Positions 20,420-42,205 of a DNA stretch of 64,000 nucleotides are shown here, one piece after another. A program made the translations under genes and the position numbers. Position 1 is the stretch's first letter; every line of letters starts with the position of its first letter. Below the pieces are notes generated by a model. It was not told where the DNA came from and did not search any database. It saw nothing but the letters and a program-made list of their open reading frames with translations. The stretch comes from an archaeon (GTDB taxonomy: Archaea; EX4484-52; WAPT01): contig JAPDKB010000009.1 in assembly GCA_029258795.1 (NCBI GenBank), forward strand, positions 40,677 through 104,676. Direction: 5' to 3'.

Positions 20420-22039
20420 TCAGAACAGCTCAACCTTCTCAATCTTTCTTAGAAGGATCTCAGGTCTCTTTATTTCATGTCCCTCCTCCAGCTTTCTTCC
20501 ACACAGTTTCCAGCTAATCTCGTTTATGTTCATGATGTCAAGCGCTTTTCCACATGTGTGGGGTATAACTGGGTAGAGCATCAGGCATATGTCCTTAGCG
20601 AGGTTTAGAGAGTGAGATAGCACCTTATGTGCCATCTTTTTATCTTCCTTCACGAGCTTCCACGGCTCGTGCTGCTGGAAGTAGGAGTTACCTATTGAAG
20701 CCAGCTTATCTATGGTCTCTACAGCACCTTTAATGTTCCACTTTTCATAACTTTCCCTCGCTTTTTCAATAAGTCCCATTACTTCCCTGAACTCCTCCTG
20801 TTCGTACGTCTCCACTCCTATCGTTTTACCCTCAAAATTCTTGTGAAGGAAGCTCAACACACGATAAACGAAGTTAATCATGTTACCCACAAGCACGTTG
20901 TTTATGGCAGCCATGAAAGCTTCCCTGCTCAGATCTATGTCCGTTATGTTATTTGATGTGTGGTAAGCAAAATAAAACCTCAGATATTCCGGATTCCCAA
21001 CCTTTTCCAGATAATCCTTGGCGGTTATGAAGGTGCCCCTGCTTTTACTCATCTTTTCTCCTTCAACCGTAAGGAAACCGTGAGTGTGAAGGTAATCTGG
21101 CAGTCTAAAGCCAGATGCCATCAGCATGGCAGGCCAGAAGAGGTAATGGAAATAGATTATATCCTTTCCTATCACATGCACAATTGAATGGCTTTCACCT
21201 TTCCATATTTTTTTCCAATCACACCCAGCTTTTTTGCAGTAGTTTGCGGTTGAGGCAATGTATCCTATTGGCGCGTCCCACCACACGTAAAAATACTTGT
21301 TTTCCTCCTCCGGAATCTTGAATCCGAAGTAAGGTCCATCTCTCGATATGCACCAGTCCTCAAGCCCCTTTTCCAACCATTCCTTGATGTAGTTCTTGAC
21401 CTCTTCTTGGAGGGGGGCTTCCTCCATCCAGTGCTTTAGCTTCTCCTCAAACGCGCTGAGCTTGAAGAAATAATGCTTGCTTTTTTTCACCACAGGCATG
21501 CTTCCACATATTGCGCATCTCGGGTTTTTGAGGTTGAAGGGCGTGTATGTTGCACCACACTTTTCACACACATCCCCGTACTGGTCTTCTGCTCCACACT
21601 TAGGACATGTGCCCTTAACATACCTGTCCGGCAGAAATCTCTCGCATTTCTCACAGTAAAGAAGCTCTACTTCCTTCGTGTAAATGTATCCCTTTTCCCT
21701 TGCATTTTCAAACATCTCTACCGCTATCTTTTCATTCTCATCGCTGTGTGTGATGTGGTAGTTGTCAACGCTTATCATGAACTCGTCCAGCACCTTTTTG
21801 AACTTCTCATGGTTTTCCATCACGAAGCTCAGCGGGTCTTTTCCCGCTTTTCTCGCGTTGATTTCTATGGGGGTGCCGTGCGCATCTGTAGCACAAACAT
21901 AAATGACGCGCTTCCCAACCATTCTGTAGAACCTAGCTATTATGTCTGTTATTATGAACTCGTACAAGTGACCGAAGTGCGGTTCGCCATTTCCGTAGGG
22001 AAGAGCCGATGTCATGAGCAAGTTTTCTTTGAGTTTCAT
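20420..22039 (-). CDS. metG: Methionyl-tRNA synthetase
   Basis: MetRS charges tRNA-Met. The 539-residue enzyme has the class I HIGH-like motif H-F-G-H-L near residue 22, a connective-peptide zinc region with four Cys pairs (C-E-K-C, C-P-K-C, C-E-K-C, C-A-I-C, about 128-180), and the K-M-S-K-S loop near residue 330, followed by the helical anticodon-binding domain. The C-terminal EMAPII-like tRNA-binding domain found in many homologues is absent. Two adjacent starts (GTG 22042, ATG 22039) overlap the end of the DUF1704 gene by about 107 bases. MetRS is the last gene of a minus-strand run beginning with the retropepsin-like gene. Confidence 0.95.
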   Translation of the reverse strand: MKLKENLLMTSALPYGNGEPHFGHLYEFIITDIIARFYRMVGKRVIYVCATDAHGTPIEINARKAGKDPLSFVMENHEKFKKVLDEFMISVDNYHITHSDENEKIAVEMFENAREKGYIYTKEVELLYCEKCERFLPDRYVKGTCPKCGAEDQYGDVCEKCGATYTPFNLKNPRCAICGSMPVVKKSKHYFFKLSAFEEKLKHWMEEAPLQEEVKNYIKEWLEKGLEDWCISRDGPYFGFKIPEEENKYFYVWWDAPIGYIASTANYCKKAGCDWKKIWKGESHSIVHVIGKDIIYFHYLFWPAMLMASGFRLPDYLHTHGFLTVEGEKMSKSRGTFITAKDYLEKVGNPEYLRFYFAYHTSNNITDIDLSREAFMAAINNVLVGNMINFVYRVLSFLHKNFEGKTIGVETYEQEEFREVMGLIEKARESYEKWNIKGAVETIDKLASIGNSYFQQHEPWKLVKEDKKMAHKVLSHSLNLAKDICLMLYPVIPHTCGKALDIMNINEISWKLCGRKLEEGHEIKRPEILLRKIEKVELF

Positions 22040-23204
22040 CACCCTTCACCAGAGTTTTTCTTGTGGTTGTGGCAACATCTTTTATGAATGATTCGGCACT
22101 TTTTAATATGTTTTCTACCTTGTTCAGGGAGCGCACACCCTTTGGCAGGAAAGATGGTTTGTTTATCTCCCCGTTTTCCATCAACATCTTCACCACTTCA
22201 AAATATTGGTGCGTGACTCTTCCGGCATAAAGCACGTGTAATGATTTCCCTTTCTTTGCAACTTTTTGAATCTCCATGAAACCCTTGAGGTAAAGGTAAT
22301 CTTTGGTGAATCCGCCCCCTCTGAAGCTCCTGAAGGTTAGAGTCCATGCCATCTCATCATCAAACCCCCATTCCTTCATTTTATGAAAAACTTCGGAAAA
22401 ACTCAGCCCTTCAAGCATGTAATGGATGCTCAGAACACGACCGGCATAATCTCTCAGCTTGTCGCTCTCTAACATACCCGTGAGCTTTTCCATGTACACA
22501 GCCAGACCCTCTTCCGTTTCTGTGTTGCGCGGAAATCCGGAAAGAAATATATCAAGTGGTTGGGTATGGCCATTCTGCGCTCTTAAGACATGCACACCTA
22601 TTTCATGCACAACAAGCCGTTTCATTTCATTCCTGCTAAATGTTCTGTTGGCAGGAACCAGAATTTTCCTTTCGATGGGCATGACTGTGGTCAGAGTTTT
22701 GGTGGAATATTCAACCACCCATCCCTTTATACCATAGCTTTCCAGCGCCTTTTCAAACACGGCTTTTGCTTCACGCTCCGTCATTCCCGCAACTTGTGTT
22801 TTTCTTTTGCTTCCCTTATAGCGTTTGAGGATTCTTTCCGCTTCACCGATCAAGCTTGAGGATGGTCTTCCATAAACTTTCAAACTGTACTCGATCACCT
22901 CATCTTTTCCTCTGTTGGCTATTATGTGCGCAATGTTTGCAAGCTCTTCAACCTTCTGGTGGTAGAGATCATAAAGCTCGCCTTCAGGAATTTGGAGGGA
23001 TGCAAGACTTTTCGCAATCTCCTTTGGGCTGAAAAAAACCACAGGGTAACGAAATTTCGGTTCCTTACCTTCACGAAAGAACCTTTCCTTCTCTTCTTTT
23101 AAATTGACAGGTTCTATTGCTCGAAGCACACCCACACTCAATTTTCTGTGTTCCTTCAATGCCAAATCAACCGCCCTGTACTTCTCAACCACACTGCCCT
23201 TCAT
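21933..23204 (-). CDS. DUF1704 metallopeptidase (QEGLA-motif/MATCAP-like family)
   Basis: The 423-residue protein carries the HExxxH motif H-E-I-G-V-H near residues 200-205 and the downstream glutamate motif T-E-E-G-L-A near 231, the hallmark of the DUF1704 family. Bacterial members are annotated as flavohemoglobin-expression-modulating QEGLA proteins; the eukaryotic members MATCAP1/2 are zinc carboxypeptidases that remove C-terminal tyrosine from tubulin. I infer a zinc carboxypeptidase acting on protein tails or peptides. It starts 1 nt after the DUF72 stop, in an operon with a RimK-like ligase. The last 36 codons overlap metG in another frame, an unusually long overlap; this C-terminal tail may result from loss of an earlier stop. 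Confidence 0.85.
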   Translation of the reverse strand: MKGSVVEKYRAVDLALKEHRKLSVGVLRAIEPVNLKEEKERFFREGKEPKFRYPVVFFSPKEIAKSLASLQIPEGELYDLYHQKVEELANIAHIIANRGKDEVIEYSLKVYGRPSSSLIGEAERILKRYKGSKRKTQVAGMTEREAKAVFEKALESYGIKGWVVEYSTKTLTTVMPIERKILVPANRTFSRNEMKRLVVHEIGVHVLRAQNGHTQPLDIFLSGFPRNTETEEGLAVYMEKLTGMLESDKLRDYAGRVLSIHYMLEGLSFSEVFHKMKEWGFDDEMAWTLTFRSFRGGGFTKDYLYLKGFMEIQKVAKKGKSLHVLYAGRVTHQYFEVVKMLMENGEINKPSFLPKGVRSLNKVENILKSAESFIKDVATTTRKTLVKGDETQRKLAHDIGSSLRKWRTALRSLVRVHNNRHNS

Positions 23205-23982: not shown

Positions 23983-24864
23983 TTAATTTTTGATTTCCCG
24001 TTCAACAAATTCAGCAAGCATTTTGGCTATGTTTTTGTCTGTGGCTTTCATCAAACCTCTTATACCTGGGTTTACATTCACCTCGATGACGTAAGGTGTG
24101 CCTTCATCATCCACTATGATGTCAACGGCCAGAATTCTTGCCTCAAGCGCTTCCGCAGTTTTTATGGCAAGCTCCTTCACATCCTCACTTGGATCATGCG
24201 CTACAGCTCTTCCTCCACTCGAAACGTTTGCCCTTTTTTCCCCTTCCGCTGCCAGCCTTTTCATTGCCGCAGCAACCTCGTAGCCGAGGAGAAGAACTCT
24301 CATGTCCTCTCCTTTGTTTGGTATGAATTCCTGCACCACTATCTCCTGTTTCAACGATTCCATCGAGCTGACCATGGCTTTGAGCTCCTCCTCAGTATTG
24401 GCGAACATCACACCCTTGCCTCCCGAGCCGGATACCAGCTTCACCACCACAGGAAACTCGAGCTTGTTTGTGAGCTTCTCTATGTTTTTGGAGGATTTGA
24501 GAGCGTAAGTGGTGGGCACATTTATGCCATTAGAGCCGAGAACTGTGGTTGTGAGGAATTTATCATGCGCTATTTTAAGCGTCTCAGCGGGGTATGGGTG
24601 TTTTATGCCTAGCACATCAAAAGCTTTAACCACATTATAACCGTGGAGCATGCGCTTTCCATCTATTCTGGGTAGAAAGTAATCAAAGTCGTGCAATAGC
24701 TCTCCGTTTGTTCTGACCTCAACGCCATCAGAGGATGCACACACGATTATGTCATCAAGAGGTACATTCACAACATCGAAAATCTTGTTCATTTCTTCCA
24801 AAATCAACTCAGTGGTTCTGGATTTAGCTCTGGGATGTGTTATCAGAACCTTTCTCTTGCTCAT
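23983..24864 (-). CDS. RimK-like ATP-grasp amino-acid ligase
   Basis: The 293-residue protein is a complete ATP-grasp ligase of the RimK/LysX/CofF/MptN group, enzymes that join glutamate or other amino acids to a carboxyl end of a protein or small molecule using ATP. It shows the glycine-rich loop S-G-S-G-G-K-G-V near residues 145-152, the nucleotide-binding strand E-I-V-V-Q-E-F-I near 175, and the metal-binding V-I-E-V-N-V-N-P-G-I-R-G near 262. The ATG lies 41 bases inside the end of the upstream degenerate paralogue, implying coupled translation. A retropepsin-like gene in the same operon recalls bacterial RimK-RimB pairs; the substrate is unknown. Confidence 0.87.
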   Translation of the reverse strand: MSKRKVLITHPRAKSRTTELILEEMNKIFDVVNVPLDDIIVCASSDGVEVRTNGELLHDFDYFLPRIDGKRMLHGYNVVKAFDVLGIKHPYPAETLKIAHDKFLTTTVLGSNGINVPTTYALKSSKNIEKLTNKLEFPVVVKLVSGSGGKGVMFANTEEELKAMVSSMESLKQEIVVQEFIPNKGEDMRVLLLGYEVAAAMKRLAAEGEKRANVSSGGRAVAHDPSEDVKELAIKTAEALEARILAVDIIVDDEGTPYVIEVNVNPGIRGLMKATDKNIAKMLAEFVEREIKN

Positions 24865-25783
24865 ATTTCCTCTTACCCCCGAGAGTGTATGCTTTAGCCA
24901 CGCTCTTAAACGTGTCCACCATTCTATCTATTAAATTAAGCAGCGTATACCTCCTGTAATGCTCACTGCAACCTTTGTGCAGATAATTTATTAACTCTTG
25001 GGTTATATCCTTGCCGAAATGTTCCTCAAACTTATCAACACGCAGCGATGTCTTTAATTTCTTTATAAGGATGGTGCTGTTTTCAACACTGAGCGATGCC
25101 TGGAAAACACTTGTGTGGAGAGCACTGGAAATTTTTGTCACAACCTCTTTAACTTTATTGGGAGTTTTTCTAAGTGGCTTTCCATTTTTGATGGAGTGAA
25201 TGCGCGTGCCTATGACAAGAACATCAATGTCTTCCACATTTTTTCCTATTTCTTCAATCATTATTGGCTGAGAGAACAGTTCCATCGTGTCCAGAAATGT
25301 TTTGAGTGAGCTCTCAGATTCAAATATTGCGCTCCCTCCCTTTTTCATTTCAGGCATGTAAACCCTGACCGGATACCGAAGCTTCGGAAGCACAGCGTTT
25401 AACGCATCCCTTGATGTTGAAAGATAAATTCCAGAAGGGCTTTCAATTTCCATAATTTCAGCATTCAGCAAAAACGTCATGAACGGGTTTGAAGCATAAC
25501 TTAAATACAAGCTGCTAACGGGCGTGAAAATCCTGTATTTTTCCAGAATGGTGCTGATTGTGTAACCGAAGTTGAGAAGCCTTGGCGGAACCATCAAAAA
25601 CACCACATCAAAATCGAGGAGAGATGCAGATTTATAGTAGGGTAGGAAGTCATCACCATTCTTTTCTATCCTCACCCCTGAAAGTGGGGCATAGAGTACT
25701 TTACCAAACTTGTACTTAGATATCTCGATAAGACGTAGATGGAAATCCTTTTTCTTTTCTGGGCCAAGAATGCAAAGCTTCAT
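24824..25783 (-). CDS. Degenerate ATP-grasp paralogue of the RimK-like ligase
   Basis: The 319-residue protein aligns in layout with the neighbouring RimK-like enzyme: similar start (a K-L-x-I-L-G-P strand), R-Y-P-V-R-V-Y with K-K-G-G-S-A in place of the glycine-rich ATP loop, and I-M-I-E-E-I-G-K near residue 175 in place of the E-x-x-x-Q-E-F strand. The metal-binding E-V-N-x-N-P-G segment is missing; its C-terminal 90 residues are instead a charged helical extension. I infer a non-catalytic or altered ligase that may act as a regulatory or substrate-binding partner of the downstream enzyme. It follows the retropepsin-like gene by 12 nt. Confidence 0.65.
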   Translation of the reverse strand: MKLCILGPEKKKDFHLRLIEISKYKFGKVLYAPLSGVRIEKNGDDFLPYYKSASLLDFDVVFLMVPPRLLNFGYTISTILEKYRIFTPVSSLYLSYASNPFMTFLLNAEIMEIESPSGIYLSTSRDALNAVLPKLRYPVRVYMPEMKKGGSAIFESESSLKTFLDTMELFSQPIMIEEIGKNVEDIDVLVIGTRIHSIKNGKPLRKTPNKVKEVVTKISSALHTSVFQASLSVENSTILIKKLKTSLRVDKFEEHFGKDITQELINYLHKGCSEHYRRYTLLNLIDRMVDTFKSVAKAYTLGGKRKYEQEKGSDNTSQS

Positions 25784-27603: not shown

Positions 27604-28900
27604 TCATCGGTTTGATCGAGGAAAGTCATTCCATTCCCACAGCGCAGTGCAACTTCTACACTCCATTAAGAACGCACACTTCTTACATTTTTCAGGTAAC
27701 GTCTTAAAATTTCTGTGTTTTTGAAGATACGGGTGTTCCTTCCAGATTTTCTCTATGCTATCGTAGAAGATATTTCCAAGGACAACGCGTGAGGAATCAC
27801 ATAATCTTATACTGCCGTCTGGGCCGATCATACACCAGTTTATGCCACCATCACACTTACCTCCATATTTTTTGACAATATCCCTCAAGCTTGTCATACA
27901 GAAAAACACGGGGGAAGCAAAACCAAAATTTAGACCGTATTCGTTTACTTTCTCGTCAATAATGTTAAGTAGCCAGTCTATTTCTTTTGATGAGAGGGAG
28001 AGGTGTTCTAGATTTTTGAAACCCTCCCCTACTGGCATAAATATTGTAGGGGCGCAATTATCCACACCCCGCTTGGCAGCAAATTCTAAGATTTCAGGAT
28101 AGTCACGATAATTAAGTTTGGTAAGTGTTGTGTTTATCCCAACTTTAATGTCACAATCTATGGCATACTTGACATTCTTCAAAACCTTTTCAAGCGCATT
28201 ACTTCCTGTCATAATCTTGTATTTTTCTCTATTCAAGGTGTGGATGGAAAACTGTATTCTCCCGATTCCGTATGATGCCAATTTCTCAACTTTTTCTCCG
28301 TTAAGAAGTGTGCCATTTGTCACCATCCCTGCCCATAGACCTTTCTCCACAAGGATGTAATGTGCTATTTTCATGAAATCATCTCTGAGCGTCGGCTCAC
28401 CCCCGGTTAGATTTACATTGTATATTTCCTCCTCTACAAGCCTATCCACGAGCTCTTTCACTTTGCTAAAAGAAAGTTCAGTAAGGTGTTGAGAACCAGG
28501 ACCTTTCCACACATTATAGCAGAATATACACCTGTGATTGCAGCGGGATGTAAGCTCAATTCCAACAACATACGGTTTTCTTGGAATTACCTCTCTTTTA
28601 TCTTTCACACCAGTTTTTGATGAAATTTCCAAAATCTCCTCAATCGGCTCTAAGCCTTCTATTTCAACTATTCCCGCAAGAGCTAAAAAACGGAAAACTG
28701 GTTTGAAAGTTTTTTCCATTTCTTCTTTAGACATACCTTTTCTCTTAAAGTACTTGAACGTCTCTTTTAGATTTTCTGTCTCGACAAGCTTTTTCCAGAA
28801 CTCGGCATTCAAACCAAAGAGAGATATCCTTTTTCCTCTGAAAAAAAACAACACACCCGAATTCTTCTTCTCTCCACCTAACTTTGGGATTAATTTTCAT
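27604..28900 (-). pseudogene. SPASM radical-SAM peptide maturase, N-terminal RRE domain out of frame
   Basis: The main open frame (27604-28854) has the radical-SAM motif C-N-H-R-C-I-F-C near residue 105, T-G-G-E-P-T-L-R, and a C-terminal SPASM-type cysteine region (C-D-G-G ... C-x-x-C ... C-R-S-C), as in enzymes that crosslink ribosomally made peptides. Its only starts are weak GTG/TTG codons inside a T8 run. In the next frame an ATG at 28900 encodes K-I-N-P-K-V-R-W-R-E-E-E-F-G-C-V-V, the classical start of a PqqD-like precursor-recognition domain, which would continue into the main frame if one T of the T8 run (28841-28848) were absent. So the gene is frameshifted here, by sequencing error, slippage or mutation. 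The upstream gene is its likely peptide substrate. Confidence 0.8.
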
Positions 28901-28935
28901 AACCAACACTTTCACTGTCTTCTAGACACCCAAAT

Positions 28936-29196
28936 CTAATCCTCCAATCCTTCAGAGAAATAATCATCTATTCTACGGTACTTTTTCTCAATTTTTTTAA
29001 GCACTTTTTGTACATCTTCCTTTCCAAAATCAAGATTTATTCCATAAGGGGGAGTGATACAAGCAAGTTTGCAGGAAACTTCATTCTCATGAGTCACACA
29101 AGCAAGTTTGCAAGAGGGTTCAGTAGTATCTATATAAATCGGAGAAAAAATTGAATCGTTCTCTTTATTTTTATTTGGGCTGTCTTTTTCACCCAT
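28936..29196 (-). CDS. Candidate RiPP precursor with duplicated SCKLAC motif
   Basis: An 86-residue peptide with a polar, Asp/Asn/Lys-rich first part, then S-C-K-L-A-C-V-T (about residues 28-35) and S-C-K-L-A-C-I-T (about 41-48), followed by P-P-Y-G-I-N and a charged amphipathic helix of about 30 residues. The repeat is also visible in the DNA. It lies immediately upstream of the SPASM radical-SAM gene on the same strand, has its own TATA box and a clean ATG. Small size, paired Cys motifs and this neighbour suggest a substrate for thioether-type crosslinking (sactipeptide or ranthipeptide class). Unusually, the Cys part is central, with a C-terminal helix that could be a follower. A small metal-binding protein is the alternative. 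Confidence 0.6.
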   Translation of the reverse strand: MGEKDSPNKNKENDSIFSPIYIDTTEPSCKLACVTHENEVSCKLACITPPYGINLDFGKEDVQKVLKKIEKKYRRIDDYFSEGLED

Positions 29197-29216: not shown

Positions 29217-29230
29217 GAAAATATTTAAAG
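29217..29230 (-). promoter_or_regulatory. TATA-like box of the peptide gene
   Basis: Minus-strand CTTTAAATATTTTC lies 22-34 nt before the ATG at 29196, consistent with a leaderless transcript covering the peptide and the radical-SAM gene. Confidence 0.5.
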
Positions 29231-40420: not shown

Positions 40421-42205
40421 TCACACACCGAAAAATTCGTTTATTTTCTGGAAGAGACTCTTTTTATCTCGTTCTTTTCGTTCAACATTTTCACTCTTTT
40501 TTGACACATTATCTATCGTATTTTTCCCCTCCTTTACCTCCTCATTAGGTGGCTCTTCACTTGCGGTTTTTTGCTCTTCACTTCGAATCTCGCTATACTC
40601 ATCTTCACTTTTTTCTTCAACCTTTTTCTCTTCTTTTTTTCCTTCTTCTTTAGCTACGCTTTTCTTGAGATCAGTGAAAATGAGATGTAATGTATCCTTA
40701 CATCCTTCATACACTTCATGCACATCATCATCACTTATCTTTCCCTGATATTCCTTCGCCATCATCTTCTCAAAGAAAGTGGCGAGCTTCATTTTAGTTT
40801 CAGAATCTATTCTTTCATCACTCTTTATTTTTTCTACAACCTGCGCGTGTGTGAGCTCCTCATTTATACCAAGGATATTCTCTACCTCTCTCTTTACTAA
40901 CAGCACCATCTTAGGGATAGCATCCCTGCCTTCATTTTTAGCGTAAATCTCCTCAAGCTCTTTTATAGCTTGCCTGTATCTGTCATCTTTAACGCTCTTC
41001 TTTTTGGAGAATAATTTTTTGAGTATGGATTCTTTCTCTTCAGTTTTCTCTTTCTTTCTATTGGCAATCTTTTCCTCGTGTTTGGAGAGTTTTTCGAGTT
41101 CATTTTCAGCGTCTTCAATCTCCTTCTTTATGCGATTAAGAAATGAGTTAAGCACAAGCTCTATCTCATCCACCACGAGATCATAGGTGGCAAGTTTATC
41201 TTCAATAATCTTTCTTTTTTTATTGTAAAGTTCCTCGTTAACCACGCCCTGATCATAAAGTTTCTGAAGAGCTTGCAGGTAAAGTTTAAGCTTTTCTTTT
41301 TCCTTTTTTACACCCTCTTCCTCCATGAATTCATCAATGAGTTTACTCATACGTTCTTTAAGTTTGATTATGGTGAGTTTTTGAGCTTCTTTATGTAAGA
41401 GTAAATCTGCAAGTTCCAGCTTCTTTACCAGAAGCTCTCTGCTTTTCTTATAATCTTCATCCTCTATAAAACCAGCTTCCTTCAATTTTTCAAGCGCTTT
41501 TATTCCATCTTCTATTTCCTTTTTCAAAGCCACGTACTTTTTAGTATTATCTCCCGAGATGATAACTGCCTCCCTAAGTTTTTTCTCTTCGCTTTTTTGA
41601 GATTCGGATGTTTCGGGTTCACTGGTATCCGCATCAGCCTCATGGGTCTCCACATTTTCCCTGAATTCTTTTTTATCTTTCTCCTTTTCTTTGCTCTTTT
41701 CCAGTCCTTTTTTGATGGTGTTTTTGAGCTCTTTAATAGCTTTCAATTTCTCCTTCAGAGTATCAGAACTCTCTTCATCTTCTTTTTCTGACACCTCTTT
41801 CTTTCTTTGAGAGGGTGGTGCCGGCGCTACAGTTTTCTCGGCCTCATCGCTCTTTTCGGAAGGAGATTCGTTAAAGAAATGTGAATATTCTTTTCCAACG
41901 CTCGTCGATGTTCCCTGAATCTTTGGCTGGGCGCTTTTCACTTCCTCTGGCTCTGAATTGCGGTAGACGTCCCCTTTTTCTTCCTGAGATTCTTCTTGAG
42001 GTTTTGATGAGGGGGGAGAAGTATTTTTACTTCCACCAAGTATGGATTTGAGCTGGGATATCATTTCCTGTGCTTGCTGGAGGGAATCATTTTCTTCAGT
42101 ATCCTTTTGCGGTAGAATAGCGTTAATATTGTCGTCTGGCTGTTTTTTTTCACTAACTTTTACATTCTCTTGGATCACTTTCTCGGTAATGACACTGTTT
42201 CCCAT
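40421..42205 (-). CDS. Lysine/glutamate-rich coiled-coil protein with SHOCT-like and DUF4129-like segments
   Basis: The 594-residue soluble protein begins with about 200 residues of disordered Ser/Glu/Lys/Pro-rich sequence. Two segments resemble SHOCT motifs: L-K-E-A-G-F-I-E-D-E-D-Y near residue 245 and L-Y-D-Q-G-V-V-N-E-E-L-Y near 315. After long coiled coils (330-400), a helical region (about 415-510; G-I-N-E-E-L-T-H-A-Q-V-V-E-K) is reminiscent of DUF4129, a domain often encoded with MoxR ATPases. The C-terminus is charged and ends F-F-G-V. It is divergent from the MoxR gene 106 nt away. Function unknown; a MoxR-linked adaptor is inferred. Confidence 0.65.
   Translation of the reverse strand: MGNSVITEKVIQENVKVSEKKQPDDNINAILPQKDTEENDSLQQAQEMISQLKSILGGSKNTSPPSSKPQEESQEEKGDVYRNSEPEEVKSAQPKIQGTSTSVGKEYSHFFNESPSEKSDEAEKTVAPAPPSQRKKEVSEKEDEESSDTLKEKLKAIKELKNTIKKGLEKSKEKEKDKKEFRENVETHEADADTSEPETSESQKSEEKKLREAVIISGDNTKKYVALKKEIEDGIKALEKLKEAGFIEDEDYKKSRELLVKKLELADLLLHKEAQKLTIIKLKERMSKLIDEFMEEEGVKKEKEKLKLYLQALQKLYDQGVVNEELYNKKRKIIEDKLATYDLVVDEIELVLNSFLNRIKKEIEDAENELEKLSKHEEKIANRKKEKTEEKESILKKLFSKKKSVKDDRYRQAIKELEEIYAKNEGRDAIPKMVLLVKREVENILGINEELTHAQVVEKIKSDERIDSETKMKLATFFEKMMAKEYQGKISDDDVHEVYEGCKDTLHLIFTDLKKSVAKEEGKKEEKKVEEKSEDEYSEIRSEEQKTASEEPPNEEVKEGKNTIDNVSKKSENVERKERDKKSLFQKINEFFGV

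What the first reader, a model, noticed from the sequence alone, without database searches (positions are those of the whole stretch)
27604..29196. Candidate archaeal RiPP locus with a duplicated SCKLAC peptide
An 86-aa peptide carrying S-C-K-L-A-C-V-T and S-C-K-L-A-C-I-T lies directly upstream of a SPASM radical-SAM enzyme with a PqqD-like recognition domain. This resembles sactipeptide/ranthipeptide loci, but the Cys pairs are central and followed by a long charged helix, and I do not recognise the precursor family. It may be a new archaeal class of thioether-crosslinked peptide.
Basis: partly seen in the sequence, partly recalled or inferred. Interest (0 to 1): 0.8.

Follow-up and report, generated by a model that had tools for sequence, protein, structure and literature searches.

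The report
Archaeal radical-SAM peptide-modification locus, orphan precursor
An archaeon carries a small cysteine-repeat peptide gene next to an enzyme built like those that cross-link ribosomal peptides; the peptide has no known relative, but following the enzyme led to an uncatalogued family of similar three-gene peptide-maturation cassettes in tiny-genome DPANN archaea.

Summary
An 86-aa ORF (28936-29196, minus) carries SCKLACVT and SCKLACIT, and lies 81 bp upstream of a radical-SAM/SPASM gene (27604-28854, minus).

The PqqD-like domain is real but broken in the assembly. Its first strands are out of frame (28841-28900), across an 8-base homopolymer. An HMM of stand-alone RRE proteins picks exactly this fragment out of 1,798 six-frame pieces, and no shuffle reaches its score. 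The frame-joined protein models as a βββ-ααα RRE plus rSAM/SPASM, closest to SkfB and SuiB.

The nearest context-informative relatives (Pacearchaeota bins, Labilibaculum) also pair an rSAM with a small Cys-rich peptide and an RRE, and usually an HExxH protease. I found 15 such cassettes, a family that NCBIfam does not name.

The window locus differs. Its enzyme is a deep, unplaced branch, its RRE is N-terminal, and no such protease was detected in its genome. The peptide has no significant homologue. Two sister species lack the locus, and its base composition is atypical, so recent acquisition is likely.

Best reading: an rSAM RiPP locus, variant of a known kind. Thioether chemistry (plausibly Cys-x-Thr) is inferred, not shown. 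A decaying gene cannot be excluded.

The parts
28936..29196 (-). 86-aa candidate precursor peptide
   Evidence: ORF; coding score above its other frames; small Cys-rich ORF also beside homologous rSAM genes
29092..29115 (-). first repeat SCKLACVT
29053..29076 (-). second repeat SCKLACIT, CKLAC codons identical to the first
28939..29031 (-). C-terminal charged segment (DFGKEDVQKVLKKIEKKYRRIDDYFSEGLED), possible follower
   Evidence: sequence; same layout, not significant similarity, in L020/L024/L023/L036 peptides
29222..29229 (-). TATA-like element TTTAAATA, 25 nt before the peptide ATG; fits a leaderless archaeal promoter
   Evidence: inference
27604..28900 (-). RRE-radical SAM-SPASM enzyme, frame-joined extent (annotated frame alone: 27604-28854)
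28678..28900 (-). RRE domain (residues 1-74 of the frame-joined protein): 28841-28900 in one frame, the rest in the rSAM frame
28841..28848 (-). T8 run (A8 on + strand) at which the RRE frame breaks; one of three runs of 8 or more in the window
28519..28542 (-). radical-SAM cluster motif CNHRCIFC (CX3CX2C)
   Evidence: sequence; invariant in alignment A4
27649..27855 (-). SPASM cysteines; CX2CX5CX2C where relatives have CX2CX5CX3C

Best explanation
The locus encodes a RiPP-type system. The 86-aa peptide is translated first. Its flanking segment is held by the RRE at the N-terminus of the rSAM/SPASM enzyme. The enzyme then uses SAM-derived radicals and auxiliary Fe-S clusters to modify the two SCKLAC(V/I)T repeats, one per repeat. 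The most economical chemistry is a Cys-to-neighbour thioether; the conserved C-x-T invites a Cys-Thr link like the one reported for CteA. A protease encoded elsewhere would release the product. Shown: the genes, the domains, RRE homology to stand-alone RREs of related cassettes, and the recurring pairing of Cys peptide and rSAM in relatives. Inferred: that this peptide is the substrate, the chemistry, that the frame break is a sequencing error or is otherwise bypassed, and the final function.
For: Domains. RRE homology: HMM 15.7 bits for the frame-joined N-terminus and 14.7 for the out-of-frame fragment alone, 0 of 5,000 shuffles reach either, and the fragment is top of 1,798 window pieces (16.2 against 8.1 bits); hhalign P 8.6e-5 frame-joined against 0.69 as annotated. 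AF2 model with RRE elements bbb-aaa (three strands, three helices). Nearest PDB folds SkfB (Z 28.2) and SuiB (Z 27.9), aligned from residue 23-25 to the end. The best-scoring relatives with informative context carry Cys-rich peptides: 10 of 11 rSAM loci first collected (window included) have one within 1.5 kb, while controls give two unconvincing ORFs in 8 loci. Six of seven further loci repeat the pattern. CteA Cys32-Thr34 C-gamma thioether: PMC8326336.
Against: No homologue of the peptide in 61 genomes and no significant similarity to other precursors, so there is no co-evolution evidence for this pair. The window rSAM is a deep branch with weak placement. The RRE frame is broken, the last SPASM cysteine is displaced and the C-terminus is short, so the gene may be decaying. 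No cassette-type protease was found in the genome, by a search without a positive control. The RRE strands have low pLDDT (35-39).
Confidence: 0.6

Rival explanations
1. A recently acquired RiPP locus that is now decaying: the frame break in the RRE and the truncated SPASM end are real, and the enzyme no longer works.
For: Frame break at T8; atypical SPASM end; atypical composition, rSAM GC 0.393 and peptide 0.341 against gene mean 0.444 +/- 0.032, codon score second lowest of 37 genes; absent from both sister species searched.
Against: All catalytic CX3CX2C and most SPASM cysteines are kept, a 416-aa frame is open, the peptide ORF is intact with identical repeats, and a TATA-like element is present. 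A single-base homopolymer indel is also a common sequencing error.
Confidence: 0.2
2. The Cys peptide is not the substrate: it is a small metal- or redox-binding protein, and the rSAM acts on another partner or makes a cofactor.
For: CX3C pairs could bind metal; the best NCBIfam scores are to AhbD/NirJ2 cofactor enzymes; no conserved pair exists to show linkage.
Against: AhbD and NirJ2 scores (131 and 129 bits) are far below their cut-offs (500); an RRE is expected for peptide, not porphyrin, substrates; related rSAMs recur with Cys peptides.
Confidence: 0.15
3. The peptide is substrate, but the modification is not a thioether (for example Cys oxidation or decarboxylation, epimerisation, or a C-C bond). 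This overlaps the best explanation, which commits to RiPP-type modification first and thioether second.
For: SPASM RiPP enzymes carry out many reactions; the closest fold by Foldseek, SuiB, makes a C-C bond and not a thioether (SuiB chemistry from general knowledge).
Against: The Cys-centred repeats and the sactipeptide maturase SkfB as the other top fold favour sulfur chemistry.
Confidence: 0.3

Closest known systems
SuiB (streptide) and SkfB (sporulation killing factor, sactipeptide) RRE-rSAM-SPASM maturases
   Same: Domain order and fold: N-terminal RRE, rSAM barrel, SPASM; Z about 28 over residues 23-425
   Different: About 20% identity; different precursor; archaeal host; atypical last SPASM cysteine
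SCIFF/ranthipeptide systems (CteA/CteB, PapA/PapB)
   Same: Cys-rich precursor beside a SPASM rSAM; C-x-T in both repeats, as in the reported CteA Cys32-Thr34 link (PMC8326336)
   Different: No SCIFF six-Cys pattern; PapB-family and other curated models far below cut-off for the relatives and none reached for the window
Mycofactocin MftB RRE
   Same: Weak full-length match of the frame-joined RRE (E 0.068) and weak match of the stand-alone RRE in L036 (E 0.0027)
   Different: Below the curated cut-off; no MftA/MftC partner
DPANN Cys-peptide / rSAM-RRE / HExxH cassettes found here (L020, L024, L036, L038, L039, L047, L048, L050, L079-L082, L084)
   Same: Cys-rich small peptide, rSAM/SPASM and RRE in one locus; the window RRE is homologous to the stand-alone RREs of L020/L024/L036/L023
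   Different: Window RRE is N-terminal; no protease nearby; enzyme not placed in the clade; peptide not demonstrably homologous

Membership tests
rSAM-modified RiPP locus (general) | rSAM plus SPASM/twitch enzyme | tested here: met
   Pfam Radical_SAM 5.8e-31, SPASM 4.6e-9
rSAM-modified RiPP locus (general) | RRE with three strands then three helices (definition in PMC12710340) | tested here: met
   Met for the frame-joined protein with low-confidence strands; the annotated frame alone lacks the first strands
rSAM-modified RiPP locus (general) | precursor peptide linked to the enzyme across relatives | tested here: inconclusive
   Small Cys peptides recur beside related rSAMs, but no homologue of this peptide was found
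Sactipeptide | Cys S to alpha-carbon thioether | not testable with these tools
   Needs MS/MS or NMR
Ranthipeptide | Cys S to beta/gamma-carbon thioether | not testable with these tools
   Needs MS/MS or NMR; C-x-T present in both repeats
[quoted passage not shown]
   Peptide has four Cys in 86 residues
AhbD/NirJ2 haem enzymes | score above curated cut-off (500 bits) | tested here: not met
   131 and 129 bits
DPANN Cys-peptide/HExxH cassette (described here) | HExxH or other peptidase gene in the cassette | tested here: not met
   None adjacent; none in the genome at E <= 10, but that search had no positive control
DPANN Cys-peptide/HExxH cassette (described here) | rSAM inside the supported clade | tested here: inconclusive
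   Window branch deep, support 74/81

The most novel reading that the evidence does not exclude
DPANN and related archaea use an unnamed RiPP class: short Cys-rich precursors matured by an rSAM/SPASM enzyme whose RRE can sit N-terminally, C-terminally or as a separate protein, and released by a dedicated mini-protease. The class has also reached Bacteroidota. The window holds a tandem-core, RRE-fused member whose product carries two Cys-Thr thioether rings.
Probability: 0.25. Interest if true: 0.78.

Novelty: new variant of a known kind. Interest (0 to 1): 0.55.

Why it matters
Products of archaeal rSAM RiPP pathways are almost uncharacterised; one survey predicts ranthipeptide/sactipeptide clusters in archaea including DPANN by class only (PMC12144867). 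This locus, and still more the three-gene DPANN cassettes it led to, gives small, defined gene sets for co-expression. Genomes of 0.4-1.5 Mb, mostly of presumed symbionts, that keep a peptide-maturation pathway would point to a role in cell-cell interaction or metal handling.

Tried and rejected
Homology of the window peptide to the Pacearchaeota/Labilibaculum precursors: 1.9 bits, reached by 171 of 1,954 shuffles scored; rejected as unproven. A suggestive IF..IDT leader resemblance was dropped for the same reason. Placing the window rSAM inside the DPANN clade: not supported. Close relatives of the enzyme: none in its phylum (34 genomes), none stronger than E 8.8e-39 in 394 mostly archaeal genomes, none in viral contigs. 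AhbD-like hits L017-L019 and L055-L057, L062: no convincing Cys peptide beside them. L049 and L085: no Cys peptide. MATCAP-type HExxH protein at 21933-23204 as the missing protease: considered, but it sits with RimK/retropepsin genes 4 kb away and is not cassette-like. Literature: no paper on DPANN rSAM RiPP families found.

Full report
What is there. On the minus strand an 86-aa ORF (28936-29196) is followed by a 416-aa radical-SAM/SPASM ORF (27604-28854). The peptide holds SCKLACVT and SCKLACIT 13 residues apart. The CKLAC codons are identical between copies, so this is a duplication rather than chance. The peptide frame scores above its other frames, and a TATA-like TTTAAATA lies 25 nt before the ATG. 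Neighbours are a DUF123/GIY-YIG protein and a Nudix hydrolase; neither looks linked.

A broken RRE. The annotated rSAM frame begins inside a recognition domain. Just upstream, in another frame, lies MKINPKVRWREEEFGCVVFF (28841-28900). The two frames meet at a run of eight T, one of only three such runs in the window. An HMM built only from four stand-alone RRE-like proteins in related loci scores the joined N-terminus 15.7 bits and the upstream fragment alone 14.7. No shuffle of 5,000 reaches either, and among 1,798 six-frame pieces of the window this fragment ranks first (16.2 against 8.1 bits). hhalign agrees: P 8.6e-5 joined, 0.69 as annotated. The joined protein models with three strands and three helices, then the rSAM barrel and SPASM; mean pLDDT is 79.5, but only 35-39 in the RRE strands. 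Closest PDB chains are SkfB and SuiB, both RiPP maturases, aligned from residue 23-25 to the end. Whether the break is a sequencing error, a mutation or recoding cannot be told from the sequence.

Relatives. No sister species has the rSAM or the peptide, and a sample of 394 genomes gave nothing closer than E 8.8e-39. The best matches in the genome collection were Pacearchaeota bins, with Labilibaculum also among the eight hits. Beside these enzymes lie small Cys-rich peptides, a separate RRE-like protein and, in the archaea, an HExxH protein weakly matching Peptidase MA. Further searches in the same phylum and orders gave more of them. In all I count 15 loci with peptide plus rSAM: L020, L023, L024, L036, L038, L039, L047, L048, L050, L079-L084. 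Thirteen have an adjacent HExxH protein (all but L023 and L083), and L083 has a transglutaminase-like protein instead. In one branch the RRE is separate; in the other a C-terminal extension on the rSAM looks like an RRE. Precursors of that branch often begin MVEKLE or MVKTLE and end in a Cys/Gly/Asp-rich tail. Control rSAMs lack convincing Cys peptides. No NCBIfam model reaches its cut-off for the proteins tested.

How far the window belongs to them. The RRE is homologous to theirs. The peptide layout, with central Cys and a C-terminal charged segment, matches L020/L024/L036/L023, but the similarity is not significant. The enzyme is a deep branch with weak placement. No cassette-type protease was detected in the genome, by a search without a positive control. 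I therefore call it similar in design and related through the RRE, but not a proven member.

Origin. The rSAM (GC 0.393) and the peptide (0.341) are AT-rich against window genes (0.444 +/- 0.032), and the rSAM has the second lowest codon score of 37 genes. With absence from two sister species, recent horizontal acquisition is likely (inference).

Mechanism. RRE-guided modification of the two repeats by the rSAM/SPASM enzyme is the best reading. A thioether is the likeliest chemistry; both repeats keep C-x-T, and CteA is reported to link Cys32 to Thr34 (PMC8326336). That step is inference. The displaced last SPASM cysteine (CX2CX5CX2C) could alter an auxiliary cluster or mark decay.

Novelty. 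rSAM RiPPs are known, and DPANN clusters have been predicted at class level (PMC12144867). The window locus is a variant with an orphan precursor. The wider finding is the DPANN cassette family, for which I found no name in NCBIfam or in the held literature; absence from those sources does not prove that it is undescribed.

Noticed in passing
L020, L024, L036, L038, L039, L047, L048, L050, L079-L082, L084: Recurrent DPANN cassette: Cys-rich small peptide, rSAM/SPASM with separate or C-terminal RRE-like domain, HExxH mini-protease; not named by NCBIfam.
   Followed up: partly
L083:1382-1879(-): A transglutaminase-like (DUF553) protein stands in the place of the HExxH protease of the cassette, as if one protease replaced another.
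   Followed up: partly
L023:4712-6262: Labilibaculum euxinus (Bacteroidota) rSAM is 57% identical to the Pacearchaeota enzyme, with peptide and RRE but no protease: likely transfer between domains. It was the only hit in 393 genomes of its order.
   Followed up: partly
L053, L054, L060, L061, L063, L064: Archaeal proteins of 330-455 aa (two tested, no Pfam match) end in SCACVSCACACACVSCACACAGGG-type tails and overlap an rSAM/SPASM gene with an N-terminal extension: a probable Cys-tail maturation system.
   Followed up: partly
window:21933-26200: Minus-strand run: MATCAP-type metallocarboxypeptidase, DUF72, RimK-like ATP-grasp, an unassigned protein (24824-25783) and a retropepsin/Zn_protease-like protein; resembles a peptide-tagging and untagging set.
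   Followed up: partly
window:39722-42205: Two more low-GC minus-strand genes (GC 0.379 and 0.382), one with a T8 run at 42143-42150 near its start; possibly another acquired segment.
   Followed up: no
L049:3271-4592: PqqD-family protein (WgkC-like, E 2.8e-8) directly before an rSAM, no Cys peptide seen; a different RiPP-like locus in the same order.
   Followed up: no
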